Shown: in pieces, positions 20,985 through 32,930 of the stretch | Position numbering within the stretch: position 1 is the stretch's first letter | Layout of the letters: each line of letters begins with the position of its first letter | Source of the DNA: Desulfoferula mesophila | Lineage (GTDB): Bacteria > Desulfobacterota > Desulfarculia > Desulfarculales > Desulfarculaceae | Direction of reading: 5' to 3' | NCBI RefSeq assembly: GCF_037076455.1 | Contig: NZ_AP028679.1 | Coordinates: 2,123,501-2,187,500 of the forward strand | DNA: 64,000 nucleotides | Position numbers and translations under genes: made by a program | The notes under the pieces: generated by a model | The model's input: only the letters and a program-made list of their open reading frames with translations | What the model was told of the DNA's origin: nothing | Databases searched by the model: none

Positions 20985-21998
20985 CTAGACGGCGAAGCCC
21001 TTGGTCTGGTAACGCTGGCCGAAGCGGGTGAGGATAAGCCCCTCCAGGCTGGGGCGGGCGGCCAGGAAACGGTGGGCCTGGGCCGGGGGCATGACAAAAC
21101 AGGCCGTGGCCAGGGCGTCGGCCAGGGAGGCCTTGGGAGCGCGCACGCTCACGCTGTGACCCGAGCCGGGGATGCGCCCGGTGGCCGGGTTGACGATGTG
21201 GTGATACAGGCGCTCCTGGTCGAAGTAGACCTCGTAGTCGCCGCTGGTGGCCAGGGCCCCGCTGGTCAGGGACACGGTCATCTTGGCCTGGGTGGGATGG
21301 TCCGGGTCGGCCACGGCCACCCGCCAGGGCTTGCCGCCCCGGTCGCCTATGACGCCCACGTCGCCGCCGGCGTTGATGAGCACGTGGCCGGCGCCCGCCT
21401 TGGCGGCGGCGGCAAGGCCCTCATCCACGATGAAGCCCTTGGCCACGCCGTCCAGGGTGAGGGACGCGCCGTCCTTGGTGCGGCGCAGGCCCTGGCCGTC
21501 GTAGTTCACCCCGCCCACCTTGGCCACGGCCGTGGCCATCTGGGACCGGCTGGGGGGCTGGTGGGTCTGCAGGAAGCTGGCCCTCACCGTGTCGATGATG
21601 GGGGCCACGGTGGGGTTGAAGGCTCCGCCGGTGCTTTGCTGCACCGCCATGCACAACTCCAGCACCGCCTTGAGGCGGGGCTCCAGATCGTTCAGGCGGC
21701 CTTCGGCGTTGAAGGCGGCCACCGGACCGCCGGGGCGGTGCCGGTCGAAGACCGGGGTGAGTTTGGCCATGGCCGCGAAGGCCTGGTTCATGGCCTCCTG
21801 AGCCTTGGCGGGTGAGGGGTCCACCACGGTCACCGAGACCAGGGTGCCCATCATCATACGAGTTTCCTGCGCGGCGTTTTGGCCTCGGCCCAGGCCCGCC
21901 AGGCCGATGGCCGGCGAAACCAGGGGCAGGGCGGCCGCGCCCAGGGCCGTGCTGCCGGCGAACCGCAGGAAGGAGCGGCGATCCAGACTGTTAGGCAT
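20985..21998 (-). CDS. apbE: FAD:protein FMN transferase
   Basis: A 337-residue ApbE. It has a twin-arginine signal (RRSFLRF at residues 7-13) and hydrophobic segment, the FMN-transferase blocks LDGVAKGFIVDE and GGDVGV, and the late T-x-G-D and HHIVNPATG motifs. ApbE uses FAD to attach FMN covalently to threonines of RnfG and RnfD outside the cytoplasm. It is last in the rnf operon, starting eight bases inside the end of rnfB, so it is probably translated with it. The Tat signal is consistent with a periplasmic location. Confidence 0.95.
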   Translation of the reverse strand: MPNSLDRRSFLRFAGSTALGAAALPLVSPAIGLAGLGRGQNAAQETRMMMGTLVSVTVVDPSPAKAQEAMNQAFAAMAKLTPVFDRHRPGGPVAAFNAEGRLNDLEPRLKAVLELCMAVQQSTGGAFNPTVAPIIDTVRASFLQTHQPPSRSQMATAVAKVGGVNYDGQGLRRTKDGASLTLDGVAKGFIVDEGLAAAAKAGAGHVLINAGGDVGVIGDRGGKPWRVAVADPDHPTQAKMTVSLTSGALATSGDYEVYFDQERLYHHIVNPATGRIPGSGHSVSVRAPKASLADALATACFVMPPAQAHRFLAARPSLEGLILTRFGQRYQTKGFAV

Positions 21999-24096
21999 TG
22001 TCCTTCCTCTCCCATTTCCAAGCCTCGTAAGGCTGATCTTTGTGACGGTAACAGTAGAGTCCGCACTGCAGGCAGCGCTGGGTTTCGGCCTTGGCCATCT
22101 CTTCGGTGAGCCCCAGCTCCACTTCCACGAAGCTGTTAGCCCGCTCGCTCACGCTGAGTTCGGGCATCTTGGCCCGGGCGCGCCCAGCCGGAGCCGCCTC
22201 CGGGGTCTCGCTGACCACCGGCAACTCCTTGGGGCCGCGCACCCAGTTATCCTGGGGCTCCGGCTCTTCGCCGCTGAGGTACAGGTGCATGGCCCGCGCC
22301 GCCCGGCGGCCCGCGCCGATGGCTTCCACCGCCGTGGCCGCGCCGGTCACGGTGTCGCCGCCGCTGAACACGCCGGGGATGTTGGTGGTCCCGGCGTCCA
22401 CGTTGGCGTCGATGGTGTTCCATTTGGTGACGGCCAGGTCCTTGGCCGCGGCGTCGGCCTCCAGGAAGGCCAGGTTGGGGAACTGGCCGATGGCCGCGAT
22501 GACGTTGTCGCACTCCAAGATGGTCTCGCTGCCCTCGATGGGCACCGGACGGCGGCGGCCCGAGGCATCGGGCTCGCCCAACTCCATCTTGATGTACTCC
22601 AGACCGGTGAGCTTGCCGTTGTCGCCCACGAGCTTGGTGGGGGCGGCCAGGAAGTGGAAGTTGATCCCTTCGTGCTTGGCCTCCTCGATCTCGATGGCGT
22701 TGGCGGGCATTTCCTTTTCGGTGCGGCGATAAAGGACGGTGACTTCCTTGGCCCCCAGGCGCCAGCAGGTGCGGGCGCAGTCCATGGCCGTGTTGCCGCC
22801 GCCGATGATGACCACCCGCTCGCCCACCGGAGTATCCTTGAGGTTGCCTCGGTCGATGAGCATGTCGGTGCCGGGCAGGACCCCATTCAGGTCCTCGCCT
22901 TCCACCCGCATGCCCCGGCTGGACCAGCAGCCCACCCCCAGGAAGATGGCCTCGTAGCCCTCTTGCCGGAGGCTCTCCAGGGTGAAGTCTTTGCCCATGG
23001 CCATGCCGGTCTTGGCCTCCACGCCCAACTCCAGGATGCCCTGGATCTCCCAATCCAGGGTGGCCTTGGGCAGGCGGTACTCGGGGATGCCGTAGCGCAG
23101 CATGCCGCCCAGGTGAGGCTGGGCCTCGTAGATGGTGGGGGCGTAGCCCAGGCGGGCCAGGTAGTAGGCGCAGGTGAGGCCGGCAGGGCCGCCGCCCACA
23201 ATGGCCACCTTGCGCTCGTTCTTGGGCATGCAGAAGGGCTGGATGCGTTTGCCCGAGTTCATCTCATAGTCGGCGGCGAAGCGCTTGAGGTGGTTGATGT
23301 TCACCGGCTCGTCGCTCTTGCCCCGGCGGCACTGATCCTCGCAGGGATGGGGGCACACCCGGCCGCAAACCAGGGGCAGGGGGTTGTGCTCCTTGATGAT
23401 GCCGACCGCGTCTTCGTAGCGCCCCTCGCCGATGGCCCGGATATAGCTGGGAATGTCGATCTGGGCCGGGCAGGTGGCCTGGCAGGGGGCCAGACAGTTG
23501 TAGTTGGCGTTGAAGCCCAGAACCCGCCGGGTCACCGAGGTGAGGTGGATGATGCTCTTGGGGCAGGCCTTTTCGCAGTTGCCGCAGCCGGTGCACAGGG
23601 CCGGGTCCACCACGGGAAGGCCGTCGGGACCGATCTGGATGGCCCCGAAGGGGCAGGCCTTGACGCAGGAGCCCAGGCCCACGCAACCGATGTCGCACTG
23701 CTTGGGGCCGCCGGCCAAAAGCACCGCCGCGCGGCAGTCCTGCACGCCGTCGTATTTGTATTTCAAGGGGGCGATCTGGGTGGAGTAGGTGCAATCCACC
23801 TGCGAGACGTCGGGCTCGCGGTAAACCACTTCCACGCCCATCACGGCAGAGACCGCCACGGCGACCTCGGGGCCGCCGCCCACGCAGATGTTGGCCGGGG
23901 CCTTGCCGCCAGCGATGGCCAGAGCCGCCGAGGCGCAACCCGCGTAGCCGCAGCCGCCGCAGTTGGCGCCGGGCAGGGCTCCTTCCACCGCCTCCACCAG
24001 GGGGTCCACCTCCACGGCGAAGACCTTGGCGGCGACACCCAGTCCCAGGGCGGAAGCCAAGCCCAATCCACCGATTGCCAGGGCTTCGAATAACAT
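21991..24096 (-). CDS. rnfB: RnfB fused to a GltD/NfnB-like FAD-NAD(P) oxidoreductase
   Basis: A 701-residue fusion. Residues 1-28 form the membrane anchor; C46, C49, C54, C71 hold the RnfB-type cluster; C134/C138/C144/C148 and C168/C171/C174/C178 are two ferredoxin [4Fe-4S] sites. Residues ~200-260 hold the GltD-type N-terminal cysteine set (C201, C205, C209, C244, C248, C252, C256). FAD site GGGPAG is at 301-306 and NAD(P) site GGGNTA at 432-437, with GVFSGGD near the end, and a last cluster CLQCGLYC. RnfB normally passes electrons from ferredoxin to the complex; the fused half resembles glutamate-synthase small-subunit or NfnB. The gap to rnfA is 81 bases. Confidence 0.94.
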   Translation of the reverse strand: MLFEALAIGGLGLASALGLGVAAKVFAVEVDPLVEAVEGALPGANCGGCGYAGCASAALAIAGGKAPANICVGGGPEVAVAVSAVMGVEVVYREPDVSQVDCTYSTQIAPLKYKYDGVQDCRAAVLLAGGPKQCDIGCVGLGSCVKACPFGAIQIGPDGLPVVDPALCTGCGNCEKACPKSIIHLTSVTRRVLGFNANYNCLAPCQATCPAQIDIPSYIRAIGEGRYEDAVGIIKEHNPLPLVCGRVCPHPCEDQCRRGKSDEPVNINHLKRFAADYEMNSGKRIQPFCMPKNERKVAIVGGGPAGLTCAYYLARLGYAPTIYEAQPHLGGMLRYGIPEYRLPKATLDWEIQGILELGVEAKTGMAMGKDFTLESLRQEGYEAIFLGVGCWSSRGMRVEGEDLNGVLPGTDMLIDRGNLKDTPVGERVVIIGGGNTAMDCARTCWRLGAKEVTVLYRRTEKEMPANAIEIEEAKHEGINFHFLAAPTKLVGDNGKLTGLEYIKMELGEPDASGRRRPVPIEGSETILECDNVIAAIGQFPNLAFLEADAAAKDLAVTKWNTIDANVDAGTTNIPGVFSGGDTVTGAATAVEAIGAGRRAARAMHLYLSGEEPEPQDNWVRGPKELPVVSETPEAAPAGRARAKMPELSVSERANSFVEVELGLTEEMAKAETQRCLQCGLYCYRHKDQPYEAWKWERKDNA

Positions 24097-24177: not shown

Positions 24178-24768
24178 CTAGTGGCCGCCCACCAGGCCCG
24201 CGAACCCGCTGAAGGCTAGGGCCAAAAATCCGGCCACCACCAGGCCGATGGAGGTGCCCTGGAAGGCCTTGGGCATCTTCACCAGCATGAAGCGCTCGCG
24301 GATGCCGGCGAACAGGACCAGGGCCAGGCTGTAACCCACCGCCGAGGCCAGGGAGAACACCAGGGTGTCCACGAAGTCGTATTCTTCGTTGATGTTGATG
24401 ATGGCCACGCCAAGCACCGCGCAGTTGGTGGTGATCAGCGGCAGGAAGATGCCCAGGGCCCGGTACAGGGCCGGCAGGCTCTTGGCCATCACGATTTCCA
24501 CCAGCTGCACCAGGGCGGCGATCACCAAGATGAAGGCGATGGTTTGCAGGTACTCGATGTTCAGGGGCACCAGGATGTAGTACTGCACCAGCCAGGTGAT
24601 CATGCCCGCCATGACCATGACGAAGATGACCGCCATGGACATGCCGGTGGCCGTATCCATGCGCTTGCTGACCCCCAGGAAGGGGCAGTTGCCCAGGAAC
24701 TTGGCCAGCAGGATGTTGTTGACCAGGATGGCGCTGACGATAAACAGCATGTAGTCGCCGAAGCTCAT
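24178..24768 (-). CDS. rnfA: Rnf complex subunit RnfA
   Basis: A 196-residue membrane protein with six hydrophobic segments. The NNILLAKFLGNCPFLGVS block, including the conserved half-helix cysteine, and TTNCAVLGVAI, are the paired symmetric cysteine motifs of RnfA/NqrE that bind an intramembrane iron-sulfur centre with RnfE. It forms part of the ion-translocating membrane core. Its ATG overlaps the rnfE stop by four bases. Confidence 0.97.
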   Translation of the reverse strand: MSFGDYMLFIVSAILVNNILLAKFLGNCPFLGVSKRMDTATGMSMAVIFVMVMAGMITWLVQYYILVPLNIEYLQTIAFILVIAALVQLVEIVMAKSLPALYRALGIFLPLITTNCAVLGVAIININEEYDFVDTLVFSLASAVGYSLALVLFAGIRERFMLVKMPKAFQGTSIGLVVAGFLALAFSGFAGLVGGH

Positions 24769-25382
24769 GACTGGGCCCTCCGCTTACGCTCGTCCAGCTT
24801 GGAGCTGACGAGGTTGATCATGGCCAGGAAGCAGCCCAAGGCCACGAAGGCGCCCGGCGCGCGCACCATGAAGGTGAAGGGCTCGAATCCATCCCAGAAC
24901 AGGCCGTGGCCCCAGATGGTGCCGTTGCCCAGGATCTCGCGGAAGGCGCCCAGCACGGTGAGGCTGATGGTGAAGCCCAGGCCCACGCCCAAGCCGTCGG
25001 CGATGCTGGGCAGAGGGCCGTTCTTGCCGGCAAAGGCCTCGGCCCGGCCCAGGATGATGCAGTTGACCACGATCAGGGGGATGAAGATGCCCAGGGCCTG
25101 GTACAGGGGGAAGGTGTAGGCCTGCATCATCAGCTCCACGATGACCACAAAGCTGGCGATGATCACGATGTAGCCTGCGATCCGCACCTTGCTGGGGATT
25201 ATCTTGCGCAGCAAGGACACCAGCAGGTTGGAGCACACCAGCACGAAGGTGGTGGCCAGACCCATGCCCATGCCGTTTTCGGCCGAGGTGGTTACCGCCA
25301 GGGTGGGGCAAAGGCCCAACACCAGGCGGAAGGGCGGGATGATCTCCCACAAGCCTTTGGTGAATTCTCTAGCTATACTCAT
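24765..25382 (-). CDS. rnfE: Rnf complex subunit RnfE
   Basis: A 205-residue membrane protein of the RnfE/NqrD family with six hydrophobic segments. GLCPTLAVTTS and VNCIILGRAEAFA are the two half-helix motifs with the iron-binding cysteines. It pairs with RnfA in the membrane core. It lies between rnfG (gap 11 bases) and rnfA (overlap of four bases). Confidence 0.96.
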   Translation of the reverse strand: MSIAREFTKGLWEIIPPFRLVLGLCPTLAVTTSAENGMGMGLATTFVLVCSNLLVSLLRKIIPSKVRIAGYIVIIASFVVIVELMMQAYTFPLYQALGIFIPLIVVNCIILGRAEAFAGKNGPLPSIADGLGVGLGFTISLTVLGAFREILGNGTIWGHGLFWDGFEPFTFMVRAPGAFVALGCFLAMINLVSSKLDERKRRAQS

Positions 25383-25393
25383 GACCGCGCTCC

Positions 25394-25969
25394 CTACTGA
25401 ACCATCTTGTCGCGGTACTTGTCCAAGGTCGTCTGGGCCTTGTTTACCGCGGCCAAAACGCCCTTGGTGGACAAAGTGGCTCCCGACAGGGCGTTGATGT
25501 CGCCTACGCCCAGTTCCTTGTCCATGGGTTTGCCCTTAAAAGAGTCGGTGAAGTTCGGCTCGATTATGCGCGCGCCCAGACCGGGGGTCTCGCTGTGGCT
25601 GACGATACTGAGGCCGGTCAGCTTCTTGCTGGCCAGATCCACGCCCAGCATCACCCCGATCTCTCCGTGATAACCCGAACCCGTGGATTCGAAGGCCACC
25701 GCGAAGGTCTTGCCGTCCTTTTTGGCCGGGAAGACGATAAGGTTGACCGGCTTGCCCTTTTTGTCCTTGCCCACCGGGATGCTGAGGCGATCCTTGATGG
25801 GGTCGTTTTGGTAGCCGCTGAGCACCGCCTTGACCGCGGGCTCCTTGACGAACTTGAGCCGGCTGTACTCGATAGGCTCCTTGGTCACGTCGTGTACCAA
25901 GGCGAGCAAGAAACCGCTGACCGCGCAGATGGCGGTGAGCACCACCAGCATTTTCAGAATATCACGCAC
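25394..25969 (-). CDS. rnfG: Rnf complex flavoprotein subunit RnfG
   Basis: A 191-residue protein with one N-terminal membrane segment and a periplasm-facing FMN-binding domain. The covalent flavin site is SGATLST in the segment INALSGATLSTKGV; the threonine of SGAT would be linked to FMN by ApbE. HSETPGLGARI, another family mark, is present. It overlaps rnfD by eight bases. Confidence 0.96.
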   Translation of the reverse strand: MRDILKMLVVLTAICAVSGFLLALVHDVTKEPIEYSRLKFVKEPAVKAVLSGYQNDPIKDRLSIPVGKDKKGKPVNLIVFPAKKDGKTFAVAFESTGSGYHGEIGVMLGVDLASKKLTGLSIVSHSETPGLGARIIEPNFTDSFKGKPMDKELGVGDINALSGATLSTKGVLAAVNKAQTTLDKYRDKMVQ

Positions 25970-26966
25970 CGCTCACCACCTTTCCGATGACCTTGGGGCG
26001 GATACGGTCCAGCAGGGGAGTGACTGCGTTCATGAGCAACACTCCGTAGAAGGCGCCGTCCACCAAACCACCCCAGGTGCGTACAATGATGGTCATCAGG
26101 CCGATTCCCACCCCGAACAAGAAGGTGCCCCAGGGGGTGACCGGCGAGGTCACCGGCTCGGGCCCCAGGAAGAAGGCGGCGATCATGAAGCCGCCCGCGC
26201 CCAGGTGGAACCAGACTATGTTCATGTTGGCCCCGAACTCCTCGTAGCCCAGCTCGAGGATGCTGGGGTCGGTGTAGGCAGCCAGCAGGGCCATGCCGAT
26301 GGCGCCCAAAACGGCGCCCACGGGAATCTGCCAGGGAATGATGCGGCGGATGAGGAGATACACACCACCGACCAGCAGGGCCCAGGCGCTGGTGGAGCCG
26401 ATGAAGCCGGCCACGTTGCCCAGCCACAGGGCGCCAAGCTCGACCATTTCAAAGGTGCTGACGTCGCCCTTGAGCTGCATCAGCAGGGTCTCGGCCTCGC
26501 TCCACTCGTCGCCGGTGCCCAGGGCCTGGGGCTCCAGGAAGGCGTTCATGGACTCGGGCCAGGAGATGTACAAGGCCACCCAGGCCACCAGGACCGGGTT
26601 CATGGGGTAGGCGCCCAGGCCGCCGAAGATGCTCATGCCCAACAGCACGGTGAGGGCGCCGCCGATGATCGGCAGCCACCAGGGCGCGCCGGGGGGCAGG
26701 ATCATGCCCAGCATCAGGCCCATGCACAACACGTGCAGGTTGCTCAGGTTGGAGGGCTTCTTTTTGATCAGGCTGGCGACGAACTCGGACACCGCCGCCG
26801 AGGCCACGGTGAGCAGCACGGTGATCAAGGCGGGGAAGCCGAAGTAGTAAAGGCCCACCAACAAGGCCGGGGCCAGAGCGATGATGTACTCCAAGTACAT
26901 GGAGCGCACGCTCATGCCTCCCAGCTTGTGGGGGGAGGTGGATACGGTAAGTAGATTCTCGTTCAT
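25962..26966 (-). CDS. rnfD: Rnf complex subunit RnfD
   Basis: A 334-residue membrane protein with about nine hydrophobic segments, typical of RnfD/NqrB. FGGLGAYPMNPVLVAW and the GSTSAWALLVGGVYLL block are recognisable. The usual flavinylation sequence (S/T)GAT or SATPL is not present; the aligned segment reads AETLLMQLKGD, leaving only the threonine. Either FMN attaches to a divergent site or this subunit lacks covalent FMN. TAATG overlap with rnfC; overlaps rnfG at its end. Confidence 0.93.
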   Translation of the reverse strand: MNENLLTVSTSPHKLGGMSVRSMYLEYIIALAPALLVGLYYFGFPALITVLLTVASAAVSEFVASLIKKKPSNLSNLHVLCMGLMLGMILPPGAPWWLPIIGGALTVLLGMSIFGGLGAYPMNPVLVAWVALYISWPESMNAFLEPQALGTGDEWSEAETLLMQLKGDVSTFEMVELGALWLGNVAGFIGSTSAWALLVGGVYLLIRRIIPWQIPVGAVLGAIGMALLAAYTDPSILELGYEEFGANMNIVWFHLGAGGFMIAAFFLGPEPVTSPVTPWGTFLFGVGIGLMTIIVRTWGGLVDGAFYGVLLMNAVTPLLDRIRPKVIGKVVSGA

Positions 26967-28321
26967 TATTCCATCCTCCCGGCCAGAACTTCGGTCTTAC
27001 CGTGACGCAGGAAGTGGACCATGGGCCGCTTGGCCGGACATACGTAGGCGCAGCAGCCGCACTCGATGCAGTTCATCAAGTTCATCTCGGCCGCCTCTTC
27101 GTACATGCGGAACTCGCAGAGCTTGCCCAACTCCGAGGGTATGAGGTTCACCGGGCAGGCCGCCACGCAGCGCCCGCAGTGGATGCAGGGGTGGTCGGCG
27201 TAAGAGACCACGTTGCCCGCGCTCTGCACCAACACGCCTTCGGTGGAGCGGGTGACCGGGGTGGCCGGGTCGAAGATGGCCAGTCCCATCATGGGTCCGC
27301 CCACTATTATCTTGCCCGGGCGCGAAGGACCGCCGCCGGCGGCCTCGATCACGTCCCTGATGGGAGTGCCCAGGCGCACCCGGAAAGTCTGAGGATTTTT
27401 CACCTCGCCGGCCACGGTGAAGACCCGGTCGATCACCGGGCGTCCGCTGATGAGCACCCGGCCCACGTCCAGGGCGCTGATCAGGGGCATCAGGACCACG
27501 CCGACGTCCTTGGGCTCGCCGTAGGGCGTGGGCACCTGGCGGCCGGTGAGGGCGCTGACCAGCAGGTTGTCGGTGGCAAAGGGATAGGCCGTCTGGCTCA
27601 CCGAGGCGGTCTCCCATTCATGCTGTCCGGCCATGGCCGCCAGGGCCGAAGCGTCCCCGCCGGCCGGCAAGGCCAGGATCACCCTTTTGGCCCCGCTGAT
27701 GCGGGCCAGGGCGGCCACGCCCACGGCCAGCTCCTCGCCGACTTGGGTCAGACAGGAGAGGTTGGGACAAACCGGCGGATCGGGGTCCACCGCGTTGACG
27801 ATCAGGGTGTCAACGGGACGCACCACCGGGATGCCGGTCATATAAAGGTAGGACTGCGGCGCCATGGGCGGGCTCAGGTCCACGTGCAGGGGGCGGCCCT
27901 CCACTTGGGCCCGCACCAGGCCGGACTCGCGCAGACGCTTGAGAAGGCGGCTGGGCCGGGACGCCTTGGCCCCGGCGGGGTCGGCCAGGGCTTCGGCGGT
28001 ATCCGCCACCCAGGTGTCTGCGCCGTCGTTTTTGATGACCACGGTGGGCACCTTTTGCCCGGCCGGGTCCACCGTTTGCACGATGGATTCCACCACGCCG
28101 CTGACCGTGGCCTGGACGGCGGCCGACTCGAATTCCTCCGAGGCTCCCACCACCTGGCCGATCGCTACCTGGTCTCCCGGTTTAACCTGGGCCTCCGCCA
28201 CGGCTCCGCGGTGCTGTCTGAGAGGCAGATAGACGCGCTCCGGGGCAGGTAAGTCCACCGGGGGCGCCGCCGCCGGCGGGCGTGGAAGGCGAATGCCCTT
28301 GAACAGATTTGAAAGTTTCAT
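26966..28321 (-). CDS. rnfC: Rnf complex subunit RnfC (NAD-binding)
   Basis: A 451-residue soluble subunit. It has the N-terminal RnfC barrel-sandwich domain (VKPGDQVAIGQVVG, ATVSGVVES), the SLBB/NQR flavin-nucleotide domain (GGPMMGLAIFD) and two [4Fe-4S] sites (CIHCGRCVAACPVNL and CIECGCCAYVCPAKRP). RnfC docks NAD at the cytoplasmic face and passes electrons with RnfB. It is the first gene of the operon; the ATG at 28321 has GGAG upstream. Confidence 0.95.
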   Translation of the reverse strand: MKLSNLFKGIRLPRPPAAAPPVDLPAPERVYLPLRQHRGAVAEAQVKPGDQVAIGQVVGASEEFESAAVQATVSGVVESIVQTVDPAGQKVPTVVIKNDGADTWVADTAEALADPAGAKASRPSRLLKRLRESGLVRAQVEGRPLHVDLSPPMAPQSYLYMTGIPVVRPVDTLIVNAVDPDPPVCPNLSCLTQVGEELAVGVAALARISGAKRVILALPAGGDASALAAMAGQHEWETASVSQTAYPFATDNLLVSALTGRQVPTPYGEPKDVGVVLMPLISALDVGRVLISGRPVIDRVFTVAGEVKNPQTFRVRLGTPIRDVIEAAGGGPSRPGKIIVGGPMMGLAIFDPATPVTRSTEGVLVQSAGNVVSYADHPCIHCGRCVAACPVNLIPSELGKLCEFRMYEEAAEMNLMNCIECGCCAYVCPAKRPMVHFLRHGKTEVLAGRME

Positions 28322-30427: not shown

Positions 30428-32332
30428 ATGGATGTACTGCTGAGTCCTTCTGGCGGGAAAGAGCACCTGCTCTTGGGCAACGAGGCAATCGTGCGCGGAG
30501 CCCTGGAAGCGGGTATGGCCTTTGCCACCTGTTACCCGGGCACGCCTTCCTCGGAGGTGCCCGACACCCTTTACCGCCTCAGGAAGCAGTTTCCCAACAA
30601 GGTGAAGTATTATTTTGAATACTCCACCAACGAGAAAGTGGCCCTGGAGTGCGCTGCCGGCGCGGCGGCCAGCGGAGTGCGCACCCTGTGCACCATGAAA
30701 CACGTCGGCGTCAACGTGGCGGCCGATCCCCTTATGACCCTGGCCTACGTGGGGGTCAACGCGGGCATGGTCATCCTCACCGCCGACGACCCCTCGTTGT
30801 TTTCCAGCCAGAACGAGCAGGACAACCGCTTTTACGCCCGTCTGAGCGGTCTGCCCATGCTGGAGCCTTCGGGCCCGGTCGAGGCCAAGGAAATGACCGC
30901 CTACGGCTTCGAGCTTAGCGAAGAGCTGGGCAGCCCAGTGATGCTAAGGACCACCACCCGGGTGAACCACGCCCGCGAGGCGGTGCCTTTCGCCAAGCTG
31001 GGCAAGGTCAAAAAGACCTCCAAGTTCCAGAAAGACCCCATGCGCTTCGTAACCGTGCCCGCGGTGAGCCGCAACCTGCACCTGCGCCTGCTCAACATCT
31101 ACAAGCAGGCCCAGGCCATAAGTGAGGCCAGCCCCTACAACCAGATTATGGGCCGGGGCAAGCTGGGAGTGATCAGCAGCGGGGTGGCGGCCAACTACGT
31201 GATGGATGCGGTGGAGGACCTGGGCGCCAAGAGCAAGATCAAGGTGCTCAAGCTGGGCTTCACCTATCCCTTGCCCGAGAAGAAGATTGTCCGCTTCCTC
31301 AAAAGCGTGGAAAAGGTTCTGATCGTCGAGGAGTTGGAGCCCATCCTGGAGCAGGCGGTACGGGCCTTGGCCCAGGAAAAGGGCATCGCCGTGGAGATCG
31401 TGGGCAAGGAGCCCGGCAAGATCCCGGCCAAGAGCGTGGACATCGAAGCGCCGGGCTTCTTCAGCCGGGCCTTCGAGTACAATCCCCGCCTGGTGCGCGA
31501 GGTGATGGCCAAGACCTTCGGCCTGGCTTTTGAAGAGCCCGCCGAACTGAGCCTGGCCGGCATGCCCGCCCCTCCGGGGCGGCCGCCCAACCTCTGCCCC
31601 GGCTGCCCTCACCGGGCCACCTATTTCGCGGTGAAGGAAGTGGCCGGCGATCAAGCCGTCTACGCCTCCGACATCGGCTGTTACACCCTGGGGGTGCTGC
31701 CGCCCATCAAGGCGGCCGACTTCCTCGTCTGCATGGGCAGTTCAGTTTCCAGCGCCGGAGGCATCTCCCGGGCCACCGGTCAGAAGGTGGTGGGCTTCAT
31801 CGGAGACAGCACCTTCTTCCACAGCGGCATCACCGGCCTGGTCAACGCGGTGCACAACAACCACAATTTCACTTTGGTAGTCCTGGACAACGGCACCACG
31901 GCCATGACCGGCCACCAGCCCCATCCGGGCGTCAATACCGAGGCCATCGGCGACCCCACCACCCACATCGACCTGGAGCCCCTGATCAAGGGCCTGGGTG
32001 TGCAGCACGTGGTGACCATCAAGCCCTTCAAGGTGCGCGCCGCCAAGAAGGCCATCGAGGAGGCCATCGCCTACCAGGGCGTGAGCGTGGTCATCAGCCA
32101 GGAGCTGTGCCCCTTGTTCGCCCGCCGGGTGGCTCCGCCAACCAAACGCGTGTTCCAGGTGAGCACCGACAAGTGCAAGGGCCACATGGACTGCATCAAG
32201 AAGGTGGCTTGCCCTGCCATGTACGTGGAAAACGGCCAGGCCAAGATCAATCCCTTGCAGTGTATCGGCTGCGCCCTGTGCGCCCAGATTTGTCCCGAGA
32301 ACGCCATCCTGCCGTTGAAGGCCGAAGGGTAA
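30428..32332 (+). CDS. iorA: Indolepyruvate ferredoxin oxidoreductase, alpha subunit
   Basis: A 634-residue protein. It has the pyruvate-ferredoxin oxidoreductase-like N-terminal domain (GNEAIVRGALEAG, CYPGTPSSEV), the middle domain and the TPP domain with GDSTFFHSGITGLVNA and VLDNGTTAMTGHQPHPG. The C-terminal end has two [4Fe-4S] motifs (C-x-K/GHMDCIKK..CP and CIGCALCAQICP). With IorB it oxidises aryl 2-oxoacids (from aromatic amino acids) to aryl-acetyl-CoA and reduces ferredoxin, which Rnf could use. The ATG at 30428 follows GGAG. Confidence 0.96.
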   Translation: MDVLLSPSGGKEHLLLGNEAIVRGALEAGMAFATCYPGTPSSEVPDTLYRLRKQFPNKVKYYFEYSTNEKVALECAAGAAASGVRTLCTMKHVGVNVAADPLMTLAYVGVNAGMVILTADDPSLFSSQNEQDNRFYARLSGLPMLEPSGPVEAKEMTAYGFELSEELGSPVMLRTTTRVNHAREAVPFAKLGKVKKTSKFQKDPMRFVTVPAVSRNLHLRLLNIYKQAQAISEASPYNQIMGRGKLGVISSGVAANYVMDAVEDLGAKSKIKVLKLGFTYPLPEKKIVRFLKSVEKVLIVEELEPILEQAVRALAQEKGIAVEIVGKEPGKIPAKSVDIEAPGFFSRAFEYNPRLVREVMAKTFGLAFEEPAELSLAGMPAPPGRPPNLCPGCPHRATYFAVKEVAGDQAVYASDIGCYTLGVLPPIKAADFLVCMGSSVSSAGGISRATGQKVVGFIGDSTFFHSGITGLVNAVHNNHNFTLVVLDNGTTAMTGHQPHPGVNTEAIGDPTTHIDLEPLIKGLGVQHVVTIKPFKVRAAKKAIEEAIAYQGVSVVISQELCPLFARRVAPPTKRVFQVSTDKCKGHMDCIKKVACPAMYVENGQAKINPLQCIGCALCAQICPENAILPLKAEG

Positions 32333-32342
32333 GGAGGAAATC

Positions 32343-32930
32343 ATGAGCACCCAACGCATAGTATTCGTGGGCGTGGGCGGCCAGGGTAACCTCTTGGCCA
32401 GCAACCTTCTGGGGCAGGCGGCCTTGGCCGCGGGCCAGCACGTGGTGGTCAGCGAGATCCACGGCATGGCCCAGCGCGGCGGTGTGGTGGAGTCGGCGGT
32501 GATCCTGGGCGACGCCACCAGCCCCATCGTGTCCAACGGCGAGGCCGACGTCCTGGTCTCCTTCGAGCCGGTGGAGGCCCTGCGCCTGTTGAACAAGGTC
32601 AACAAGGACTCCCTGGTCATCACCAACACCCGGCCTTTGCCTCCGTTCACCGTGGCCATCGGCGCGGCGCCTTATCCCGCGCCCGAGGATTCGGTGGTCT
32701 ATCTCAAGAAAAAGTTGGCCAAGGTCATCGCCTTTGACGGCCAGTCCCTGGCCGAGGAGGCCAAGAACCCGCTGAGCCTGAACATGGTCATGCTGGGCGC
32801 GCTGTTCGGCGCGGTCAAGCTGCCCATCGACGTCAAGACCATGAAAAAGGTCATCCGCTCCCAGACCAAGAAGCGCTTCGCCGCTTCTAACGTCAAGGCC
32901 TTTGACCTGGGGTTCAAGGCCGCGGCCTAG
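32343..32930 (+). CDS. iorB: Indolepyruvate ferredoxin oxidoreductase, beta subunit
   Basis: A 195-residue subunit of the pyruvate/ketoisovalerate oxidoreductase gamma type. GVGGQGNLLASNLLGQAAL, SEIHGMAQRGGVVES and a Rossmann-like body are present. It is 10 bases downstream of iorA with an AAGGAGG Shine-Dalgarno sequence. It provides the second half of the active enzyme with IorA. A strong terminator follows. Confidence 0.96.
   Translation: MSTQRIVFVGVGGQGNLLASNLLGQAALAAGQHVVVSEIHGMAQRGGVVESAVILGDATSPIVSNGEADVLVSFEPVEALRLLNKVNKDSLVITNTRPLPPFTVAIGAAPYPAPEDSVVYLKKKLAKVIAFDGQSLAEEAKNPLSLNMVMLGALFGAVKLPIDVKTMKKVIRSQTKKRFAASNVKAFDLGFKAAA

What the first reader, a model, noticed from the sequence alone, without database searches (positions are those of the whole stretch)
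21991..24096. RnfB fused to a complete GltD/NfnB-like FAD-NAD(P) module
A normal RnfB with its three cluster sites continues without a break into a full pyridine-nucleotide oxidoreductase with its own GltD-type cysteine set, FAD and NAD(P) motifs and a final CxxC cluster. This would give the Rnf complex a second nucleotide site beside RnfC, perhaps for NADPH or for bifurcation. I do not know this fusion from characterised Rnf complexes.
Basis: partly seen in the sequence, partly recalled or inferred. Interest (0 to 1): 0.72.

Follow-up and report, generated by a model that had tools for sequence, protein, structure and literature searches.

The report
Rnf pump with relocated NADPH site
A subunit of a bacterial ion pump is fused to an NADPH-handling enzyme that replaces the pump's usual ferredoxin entry, while the pump's original NADH site has decayed; this pump type was already known in sulfate reducers, but how it works has not been tested.

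Summary
One 701-aa ORF (24096..21991, minus) joins RnfB to a complete FAD/NAD(P)H module inside an intact rnfCDGEAB-apbE operon. The fusion recurs in dozens of genomes, including isolates, so it is not an assembly join. It is not new in kind: it is the large RnfB of the 'Rnf2' (Desulfobacula toluolica-type) complex, in print by 2016. 'A second nucleotide site beside RnfC' is not supported. RnfC here, and in all 41 other fused loci with rnfC, has lost the FMN/NADH motifs of canonical RnfC. RnfD has lost its FMN-pocket Arg and Glu in all 41. The module takes the place of the ferredoxin-docking end of RnfB and resembles StnC (Lys at the FAD-proximal cluster, 59 of 59), a non-bifurcating NADPH input, rather than bifurcating NfnB. 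The final CxxC is a permuted GltD ligand pair, not an extra cluster. Most likely NADPH enters at RnfB (Nqr-like polarity) and electrons leave through RnfA/E and RnfG to a non-NAD acceptor. In 31 of 41 loci a multiheme cytochrome c gene lies just upstream of rnfC, but not in the window's own lineage. The exit route is inferred.

The parts
21991..24096 (-). RnfB-GltD fusion ('large RnfB'), 701 aa
24022..24093 (-). N-terminal membrane helix of RnfB (residues 2-25)
   Evidence: predicted helix in the AlphaFold2 model; TM anchor of RnfB per PMC9588780
23884..23961 (-). RnfB FdI [4Fe-4S] domain (C46, C49, C54, C71)
   Evidence: PF04060; Cys in 59 of 59 fused relatives
23551..23697 (-). RnfB dicluster ferredoxin domain (residues 134-182)
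   Evidence: Fer4 hits; Cys in 59 of 59
23254..23496 (-). Fer4_20 domain of the GltD module (residues 201-281), with Lys271 at the FAD-proximal cluster position
   Evidence: PF14691; Lys in 59 of 59, aligned with StnC K170
23107..23211 (-). FAD Rossmann motif (residues 296-330)
   Evidence: Pyr_redox_2 / NAD_binding_8
22699..22803 (-). NADP(H)-type motif GGGNTA...YRRTEKEMPAN (residues 432-466)
   Evidence: intact in 50 of 59 fused relatives
22051..22074 (-). permuted CxxC of the GltD module (C675, C678) and C682
24178..24768 (-). rnfA
   Evidence: PF02508; both Fe-site Cys conserved
24765..25382 (-). rnfE
   Evidence: PF02508; both Fe-site Cys conserved
25394..25969 (-). rnfG with FMN-attachment motif SGAT
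   Evidence: PF04205
25962..26966 (-). rnfD
   Evidence: PF03116; TIGR01946 above cutoff
26394..26582 (-). decayed FMN pocket of RnfD (Arg130 to Trp, Glu185 to Ser, C. tetanomorphum numbering; Thr153 kept in altered context EAET)
26966..28321 (-). rnfC
   Evidence: TIGR01945 above cutoff; RnfC fold in the model
27872..27931 (-). site of the lost glycine-rich FMN/NADH loop of RnfC (residues 131-150)
27038..27187 (-). two retained [4Fe-4S] clusters of RnfC (C379 to C428)
   Evidence: 8 Cys in 43 of 43 fused rows (two of them duplicates)
20985..21998 (-). apbE flavin transferase, overlapping the end of rnfB
   Evidence: PF02424

Best explanation
This is the large RnfB of an Rnf2-type complex. Shown by sequence: (a) a StnC-like GltD module with FAD, two [4Fe-4S] clusters and an NADP(H)-type site replaces the C-terminal ferredoxin-docking domain of RnfB; (b) RnfC of the same operon has lost its FMN/NADH motifs but keeps two [4Fe-4S] clusters; (c) RnfD has lost FMN-pocket residues; (d) RnfA/E cysteines and the RnfG flavin-attachment site are intact. 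Inferred: the nucleotide site has moved from the RnfC end to the RnfB end, so the complex takes electrons from NADPH (or returns them to NADP+) at RnfB and passes them FAD -> GltD clusters -> RnfB clusters -> RnfA/E -> FMN of RnfG. This is the polarity of Na+-NQR, not of classical Rnf. The partner at the other end is not NAD and probably not ferredoxin, but something of higher potential than NADPH. In most relatives it is probably the periplasmic class III cytochrome c encoded next to rnfC, exchanging with RnfG. In the window's family, which lacks that neighbour, it is a cytochrome encoded elsewhere or another acceptor. Ion translocation by the retained membrane core is assumed, not shown.
For: Fusion and operon. 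Loss of RnfC motifs in 41 of 41 other distinct fused loci that hold rnfC and in the window; 37 distinct canonical loci keep them, but that class was defined by them. RnfD Arg130 and Glu185 (FMN pocket, PMC9588780): 0 of 41 fused, 36 of 36 canonical rows aligned (33 distinct loci); Thr153 kept in 5 of 41. The NuoF profile TIGR01959 matches canonical RnfC L050 (4.7e-15) but not the window or L115 RnfC, while an NqrA profile rises from 41.6 bits (L050) to 67.1 (window) and 96.9 (L115). RnfA/E Fe-site Cys and the RnfG SGAT-like motif are kept in 43 of 43 fused rows (two duplicates). Lys271 as in StnC K170, 59 of 59. NADP motif intact in 50 of 59. A multiheme cytochrome just upstream of rnfC in 31 of 41 fused loci and 0 of 35 distinct canonical loci with at least 900 bases of upstream sequence; the five scanned are class III type. 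All fused loci in the RnfA+E tree fall in one clade, 100/99, with no canonical row. PMC5109826 infers from Tol2 that RnfC must use a partner other than NAD.
Against: RnfC keeps both clusters in every locus, which an exit only through RnfG would not need. In D. alaskensis the decaheme cytochrome of the rnf operon was dispensable while Rnf was not (PMC4215793). The window and 9 of the 41 other fused loci have no cytochrome next to rnfC (one more is too short to tell). The NADP motif is degenerate in 9 of 59 fused proteins, 8 of them in rnfC-bearing loci. RnfD could hold flavin by other residues, and the window's lineage keeps a Thr at the attachment position. The changes share one ancestry, so counts are not independent events. 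The PMC11887813 passage still describes Rnf2 and Nfn as linking the NADH, ferredoxin and NADP pools.
Confidence: 0.6

Rival explanations
1. The NADPH enters at RnfB as above, but electrons still return through RnfD (with a non-covalent or differently bound flavin, or riboflavin alone) to the two RnfC clusters and leave there to a soluble one-electron acceptor, or to quinone at the RnfD/RnfC boundary as in NQR.
For: RnfC keeps all eight cluster cysteines and an RnfC fold close to 9eri_C (TM 0.82/0.84) with NqrA next; the acid at Asp248 is kept as Glu or Asp in 41 of 41; in Desulfarculaceae a Thr remains at the attachment position.
Against: Arg130 and Glu185 of the FMN pocket are gone in all 41 fused loci and Thr153 in 36 of 41; cytochrome c sits beside rnfC in most relatives.
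Confidence: 0.25
2. The GltD module bifurcates as in NfnB: NADPH gives one electron to ferredoxin (through RnfC or GltD clusters) and one to the Rnf chain.
For: Same fold as NfnB/NfnL; Arg341, aligned with NfnB R201, is kept in 59 of 59.
Against: The NfnB Glu at the FAD-proximal cluster is Lys in 59 of 59, as in StnC, whose FAD was argued to be non-bifurcating; StnC also keeps the Arg. The nearest solved relatives are StnC and NfnABC chains.
Confidence: 0.1
3. One reading: a classical Fd:NAD Rnf that has gained a second nucleotide site, RnfC still working with NADH.
For: Rnf operon complete; RnfC still scores above the rnfC subfamily cutoff and weakly above the Complex1_51K cutoff.
Against: The residues invariant in canonical RnfC around FMN/NADH are changed; the ferredoxin-docking domain of RnfB is absent.
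Confidence: 0.04
4. Assembly or frameshift artefact joining two genes.
For: None found; reads could not be examined.
Against: Same fusion in 28 of 247 genomes sampled and in two named isolates.
Confidence: 0.01

Closest known systems
Rnf2 / Desulfobacula toluolica-type Rnf (large RnfB), PMC5109826 and PMC11887813
   Same: RnfB of about 700 aa with NAD-binding sites; RnfC without NADH-oxidoreductase function; found with all other Rnf subunits; proteins detected in cells
   Different: PMC5109826 reports that the Tol2 RnfC also lacks the soluble-ligand-binding domain; here SLBB and a weak Complex1_51K match remain. The D. multivorans cluster carries a cytochrome gene; the window's does not. The passages read do not name GltD, StnC, the lost ferredoxin-docking domain or the RnfD pocket.
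StnC of the Stn transhydrogenase and NfnA of NfnABC
   Same: GltD-like FAD/NADPH domain with two [4Fe-4S] clusters, Lys at the FAD-proximal cluster (StnC), permuted C-terminal segment (NfnA of 9n5u), feeding a chain of clusters
   Different: There fused to a NuoG-like part and coupled to a soluble bifurcating module; here fused to membrane-anchored RnfB
Na+-NQR
   Same: Nucleotide site on the subunit next to the NqrD/E-type pair; the RnfC homologue NqrA has no FMN
   Different: NqrF is an unrelated FAD/2Fe-2S protein; Rnf2 RnfC keeps two [4Fe-4S] clusters; NqrB keeps covalent FMN
Classical Rnf (C. tetanomorphum, A. woodii)
   Same: Same six subunits and gene types
   Different: Ferredoxin at RnfB, NAD at RnfC, FMN in RnfC and RnfD
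Desulfovibrio Rnf with decaheme DhcA; Methanosarcina Rnf with a multiheme cytochrome
   Same: Multiheme cytochrome c beside Rnf
   Different: RnfB not known to be fused (recalled for these species)

Membership tests
Rnf complex | rnfA, B, C, D, E, G in one operon | tested here: met
Rnf complex | Fe-site Cys of RnfA/E and FMN motif of RnfG | tested here: met
Classical Fd:NAD+ Rnf | FMN/NADH site in RnfC | tested here: not met
Classical Fd:NAD+ Rnf | C-terminal 2x[4Fe-4S] ferredoxin-docking domain of RnfB | tested here: not met
   7zc6_B 196-274 unmatched, GltD module begins there
Classical Fd:NAD+ Rnf | FMN pocket of RnfD (Arg130, Thr153, Glu185) | tested here: not met
   Trp, Thr in altered context, Ser
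Rnf2 (D. toluolica type) | RnfB about 700 aa with NAD(P) sites | tested here: met
   L115, whose position next to a canonical operon fits the published rnf1/rnf2 places of D. multivorans, falls in the same clade
Rnf2 (D. toluolica type) | RnfC without the NADH-oxidoreductase function | tested here: met
   motifs lost although the domain fold remains
Rnf2 (D. toluolica type) | RnfC without the soluble-ligand-binding domain | tested here: not met
   SLBB PF10531 2.9e-14 in the window RnfC; the window is a member of the Rnf2 clade with a less reduced RnfC
NfnB (bifurcating) | Glu at the FAD-proximal [4Fe-4S] cluster | tested here: not met
   Lys271, 59 of 59 (PMC10482914)
StnC-like NADPH input module | GltD fold, FAD, two clusters, Lys at the proximal cluster | tested here: met
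StnC-like NADPH input module | NADPH oxidation | not testable with these tools
   motif only

The most novel reading that the evidence does not exclude
Rnf2 is an inverted half-circuit pump. NADPH enters at a StnC-like RnfB, and electrons cross the membrane once through RnfA/E to the RnfG flavin and on to periplasmic cytochrome c. The return leg (RnfD FMN, RnfC FMN) has been dismantled, so RnfD/RnfC serve ion coupling or a new redox role. It would be an NADPH:cytochrome c oxidoreductase, or a gradient-driven NADP+ reductase, unlike any characterised Rnf or NQR.
Probability: 0.33. Interest if true: 0.75.

Novelty: new member of a known kind. Interest (0 to 1): 0.5.

Why it matters
Rnf2 is reported as part of the core genome of Desulfobacteraceae, formed abundantly and constitutively in six strains (PMC11887813), yet its mode of action was called unverified (PMC5109826). 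The joint loss of the RnfC and RnfD flavin sites, the replacement of the ferredoxin entry and the StnC-like residue make a specific, testable scheme: NADPH in at RnfB, no NAD at RnfC. If right, energy budgets of complete-oxidising sulfate reducers that draw Rnf2 as Fd:NAD would need to be redone.

Tried and rejected
Assembly artefact: rejected by recurrence. Extra C-terminal cluster: rejected, permuted GltD CxxC. A new heme site in RnfC or RnfD: the class-specific conserved columns show no new His or Cys. Fusion as the cause of the RnfC loss: not so simple, since non-fused members of the same clade (f18, f39, f41 families) have the loss too, and a separate group (L153-L157) lost the RnfC motif while keeping the RnfD pocket where it could be aligned. 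One origin of the fusion is not rejected (AU p 0.33) but not shown either. Other GltD proteins as the source of the module: the quick tree gave only moderate support (SH-aLRT 85), and the length filter of that script dropped the three orphan proteins and some fused ones; of 45 fused modules left, 28 were put in the tree. The first alignment of RnfC (A2) contained a meaningless placeholder stretch (L061:1501-1600) and was not used further. Papers of which nothing could be read: the D. toluolica genome paper and Pereira 2011; the supplementary figure S18 of PMC11887813 could not be opened (no look-ups allowed). The literature searches behind 'not found in print' for the RnfD pocket and the StnC-like residue are.
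Full report
What is there. The ORF at 24096..21991 on the minus strand encodes 701 residues without a break. Its first 192 residues match RnfB of C. tetanomorphum and A. woodii; from about residue 197 to 683 it matches NfnABC/StnC, NfnL, GltD and DPD chains. It is the sixth rnf gene of a tight operon C-D-G-E-A-B followed by apbE. The genome is one contig of 4.48 Mb with a single rnfC. Its closest loci include a named Desulfarculaceae bacterium.

It recurs. One scan of genome contigs returned 57 loci, of which 34 match over at least 665 of the 701 residues, among them the isolates Desulfocicer vacuolatum DSM 3385 and Desulfocarbo indianensis. In 247 genomes sampled across the phylum, 28 have a full-length fusion at E <= 1e-140, nine of them twice (my count of rows). 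Two sampled genomes have the sizes I recall for Desulfarculus baarsii (G015, 3,655,731 bases) and Desulfococcus multivorans (G161, 4,455,399 bases); the rnf1/rnf2 positions in G161 fit those printed for D. multivorans.

It is in print. PMC5109826 (section 23 read) says that D. [quoted passage not shown] multivorans has such an Rnf2 beside a classical Rnf1 with a cytochrome gene in the rnf2 cluster, and that the mode of action awaits verification. PMC11887813 (passages) puts Rnf2 in the Desulfobacteraceae core genome, abundant in six strains. So the fusion type is known; its mechanism is not.

The RnfC site is gone. Against A. woodii RnfC the loop GIVGLGGATFPTHVKL reads GLVRAQVEGRPLHVDL in the window, NGAECEP reads NAVDPDP, and VEDNK is lost. 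Over the fetched loci, 41 distinct fused loci with rnfC all lack these motifs; 37 distinct loci keep them and none of those is fused (two duplicate fused and three duplicate canonical rows set aside; the canonical class was defined by these motifs, and a few of its members have no rnfB on the stretch). Columns invariant in canonical RnfC around FMN/NADH (the glycine-rich loop, E-C-E, E-x-N-K and QG-x-EK) are changed. A NuoF profile hits canonical L050 but neither the window nor L115; an NqrA profile gains. The predicted fold is still RnfC (pLDDT 81.9, pTM 0.83; TM 0.82/0.84 to 9eri_C, then NqrA). All eight cluster cysteines stay.

RnfD's FMN pocket is also gone. Using the residues named in PMC9588780 (passages), Arg130, Thr153, Glu185 and Asp248 are present in 36 of 36 canonical rows aligned (33 distinct loci). 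In 41 fused loci Arg130 and Glu185 are absent in all, Thr153 remains in 5, Asp248 is Glu in 34 and Asp in 7, and no Ser284 was read (one row unreadable). The window has W, T (in EAET instead of GAT), S, E, F. I found no statement of this in the papers searched. RnfG's SGAT-like motif and the RnfA/E cysteines are intact throughout the fused rows.

What the module is. It begins where RnfB's last ferredoxin domain would (canonical C-termini). Its nearest solved relatives by sequence and fold are NfnABC and StnC. Its C-terminal CxxC aligns with the N-terminal CxxC of NfnL, so the module is circularly permuted. In StnC the FAD was argued to be non-bifurcating and the neighbouring cluster has Lys170 where NfnB has Glu (PMC10482914, section 9 and passages read). 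The aligned residue here is Lys271, and it is Lys in 59 of 59 fused relatives. The NADP-type motif is intact in 50 of 59; that it selects NADPH over NADH is inferred from NADPH-using relatives. The AlphaFold2 model of RnfB is of moderate quality (pLDDT 72.5, pTM 0.68), so no distances are drawn from it.

Neighbours and ancestry. An ORF with at least three CxxCH motifs lies on the same strand within 900 bases upstream of rnfC in 31 of 41 fused loci, 8 of 16 non-fused loci with a lost RnfC motif, and 0 of 35 distinct canonical loci with enough upstream sequence. Five such ORFs (three beside fused, two beside non-fused operons) were scanned and all are class III cytochromes. The window's family lacks it; a distant relative lies elsewhere in the window's genome (32 percent identity, 7.3e-10). 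In a tree of RnfA+RnfE (75 loci) all fused loci and the non-fused f18, f39 and f41 groups form one clade (100/99) without any canonical row; the fusion label needs two changes, and one origin is not rejected (p 0.33). The losses are therefore mainly one old event kept over a deep clade, not many independent ones.

Mechanism. Classical Rnf passes electrons from ferredoxin at RnfB over RnfA/E and RnfG to RnfD, RnfC and NAD, while in NQR the nucleotide site is on the input side (PMC9588780). Here the input side has gained the NADPH module and the output side has lost NAD. If ion export still goes with flow from RnfB to RnfC, the far partner must lie above NADPH in potential; ferredoxin (about -420 mV, against -320 mV for NAD, in PMC12174285) at that end would make no energetic sense. 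The cytochrome beside rnfC and the intact RnfG flavin point to an exit on the outer face, an idea already aired for cytochrome-linked Rnf of sulfate reducers (PMC4287179, passages). Against it stand the retained RnfC clusters, the families without the cytochrome, and the dispensable decaheme of D. alaskensis (PMC4215793, passages). Steps from RnfG outward and the coupling ion are inference.

Verdict. Observation confirmed; the fusion is a member of a published but uncharacterised kind; 'second site' should read 'moved site'; bifurcation by this module is disfavoured.

Noticed in passing
L109:5145-5750 (-), L110:3789-4427 (+), L111:3717-4322 (+); not in the window: In three genomes of one genus (G017, G091, G055) rnfE has an in-frame TGA exactly at the conserved Cys (VVN-TGA-IPLGRAEAFA) that is an RnfA/E iron-site ligand; a fourth (G120) has Cys. 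Only these 3 of 94 genomes with an RnfE hit show a clearly internal TGA (other stops there look terminal). SelB and tRNA-Sec are present in all of them. Candidate selenocysteine ligand; the downstream hairpin is not better than shuffles and no paper listed held all three terms.
   Followed up: partly
L070:7699-9741 (-) (own genome C1:771710-773740), outside the window: A second RnfB-GltD protein (681 aa, 50% identity) without other rnf genes, beside an iron-sulfur protein and what reads by eye as a formate dehydrogenase with an in-frame stop after VDHCARL; its NADP motif is degenerate.
   Followed up: partly
L116:3885-5975 (-) and L122:3851-6004 (-): Similar orphan RnfB-GltD proteins in G161 and G015; in L116 the upstream ORFs look by eye like NuoF- and NuoE-type subunits. 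The orphans may be membrane adaptors for other dehydrogenases.
   Followed up: no
L117:3895-5694, L118:3970-5754, L119:3491-5296, L120:1941-3749: Four genomes (three of family f39, one of f73) carry a 595-603 aa protein that joins the RnfB dicluster part to the GltD module, away from rnf and without the RnfB N-terminus; it nests among fused modules in the quick tree, so it may be a split-off of the fusion.
   Followed up: partly
L031, L032, L123, L132-L137: Nine fused RnfB proteins have a degenerate NADP motif although the cluster cysteines and Lys271 are kept; their electron donor is unclear.
   Followed up: no
L153-L157: A separate Rnf group (families f20, f35) in which RnfC has lost the FMN/NADH motif while RnfD keeps its FMN pocket and RnfB is not fused (RnfD of L155 not aligned).
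   Followed up: no
window 30428-32930 (+): Two ORFs on the plus strand beyond rnfC read by eye as the two subunits of an indolepyruvate:ferredoxin oxidoreductase, with response-regulator/histidine-kinase-like ORFs between them and rnfC.
   Followed up: no
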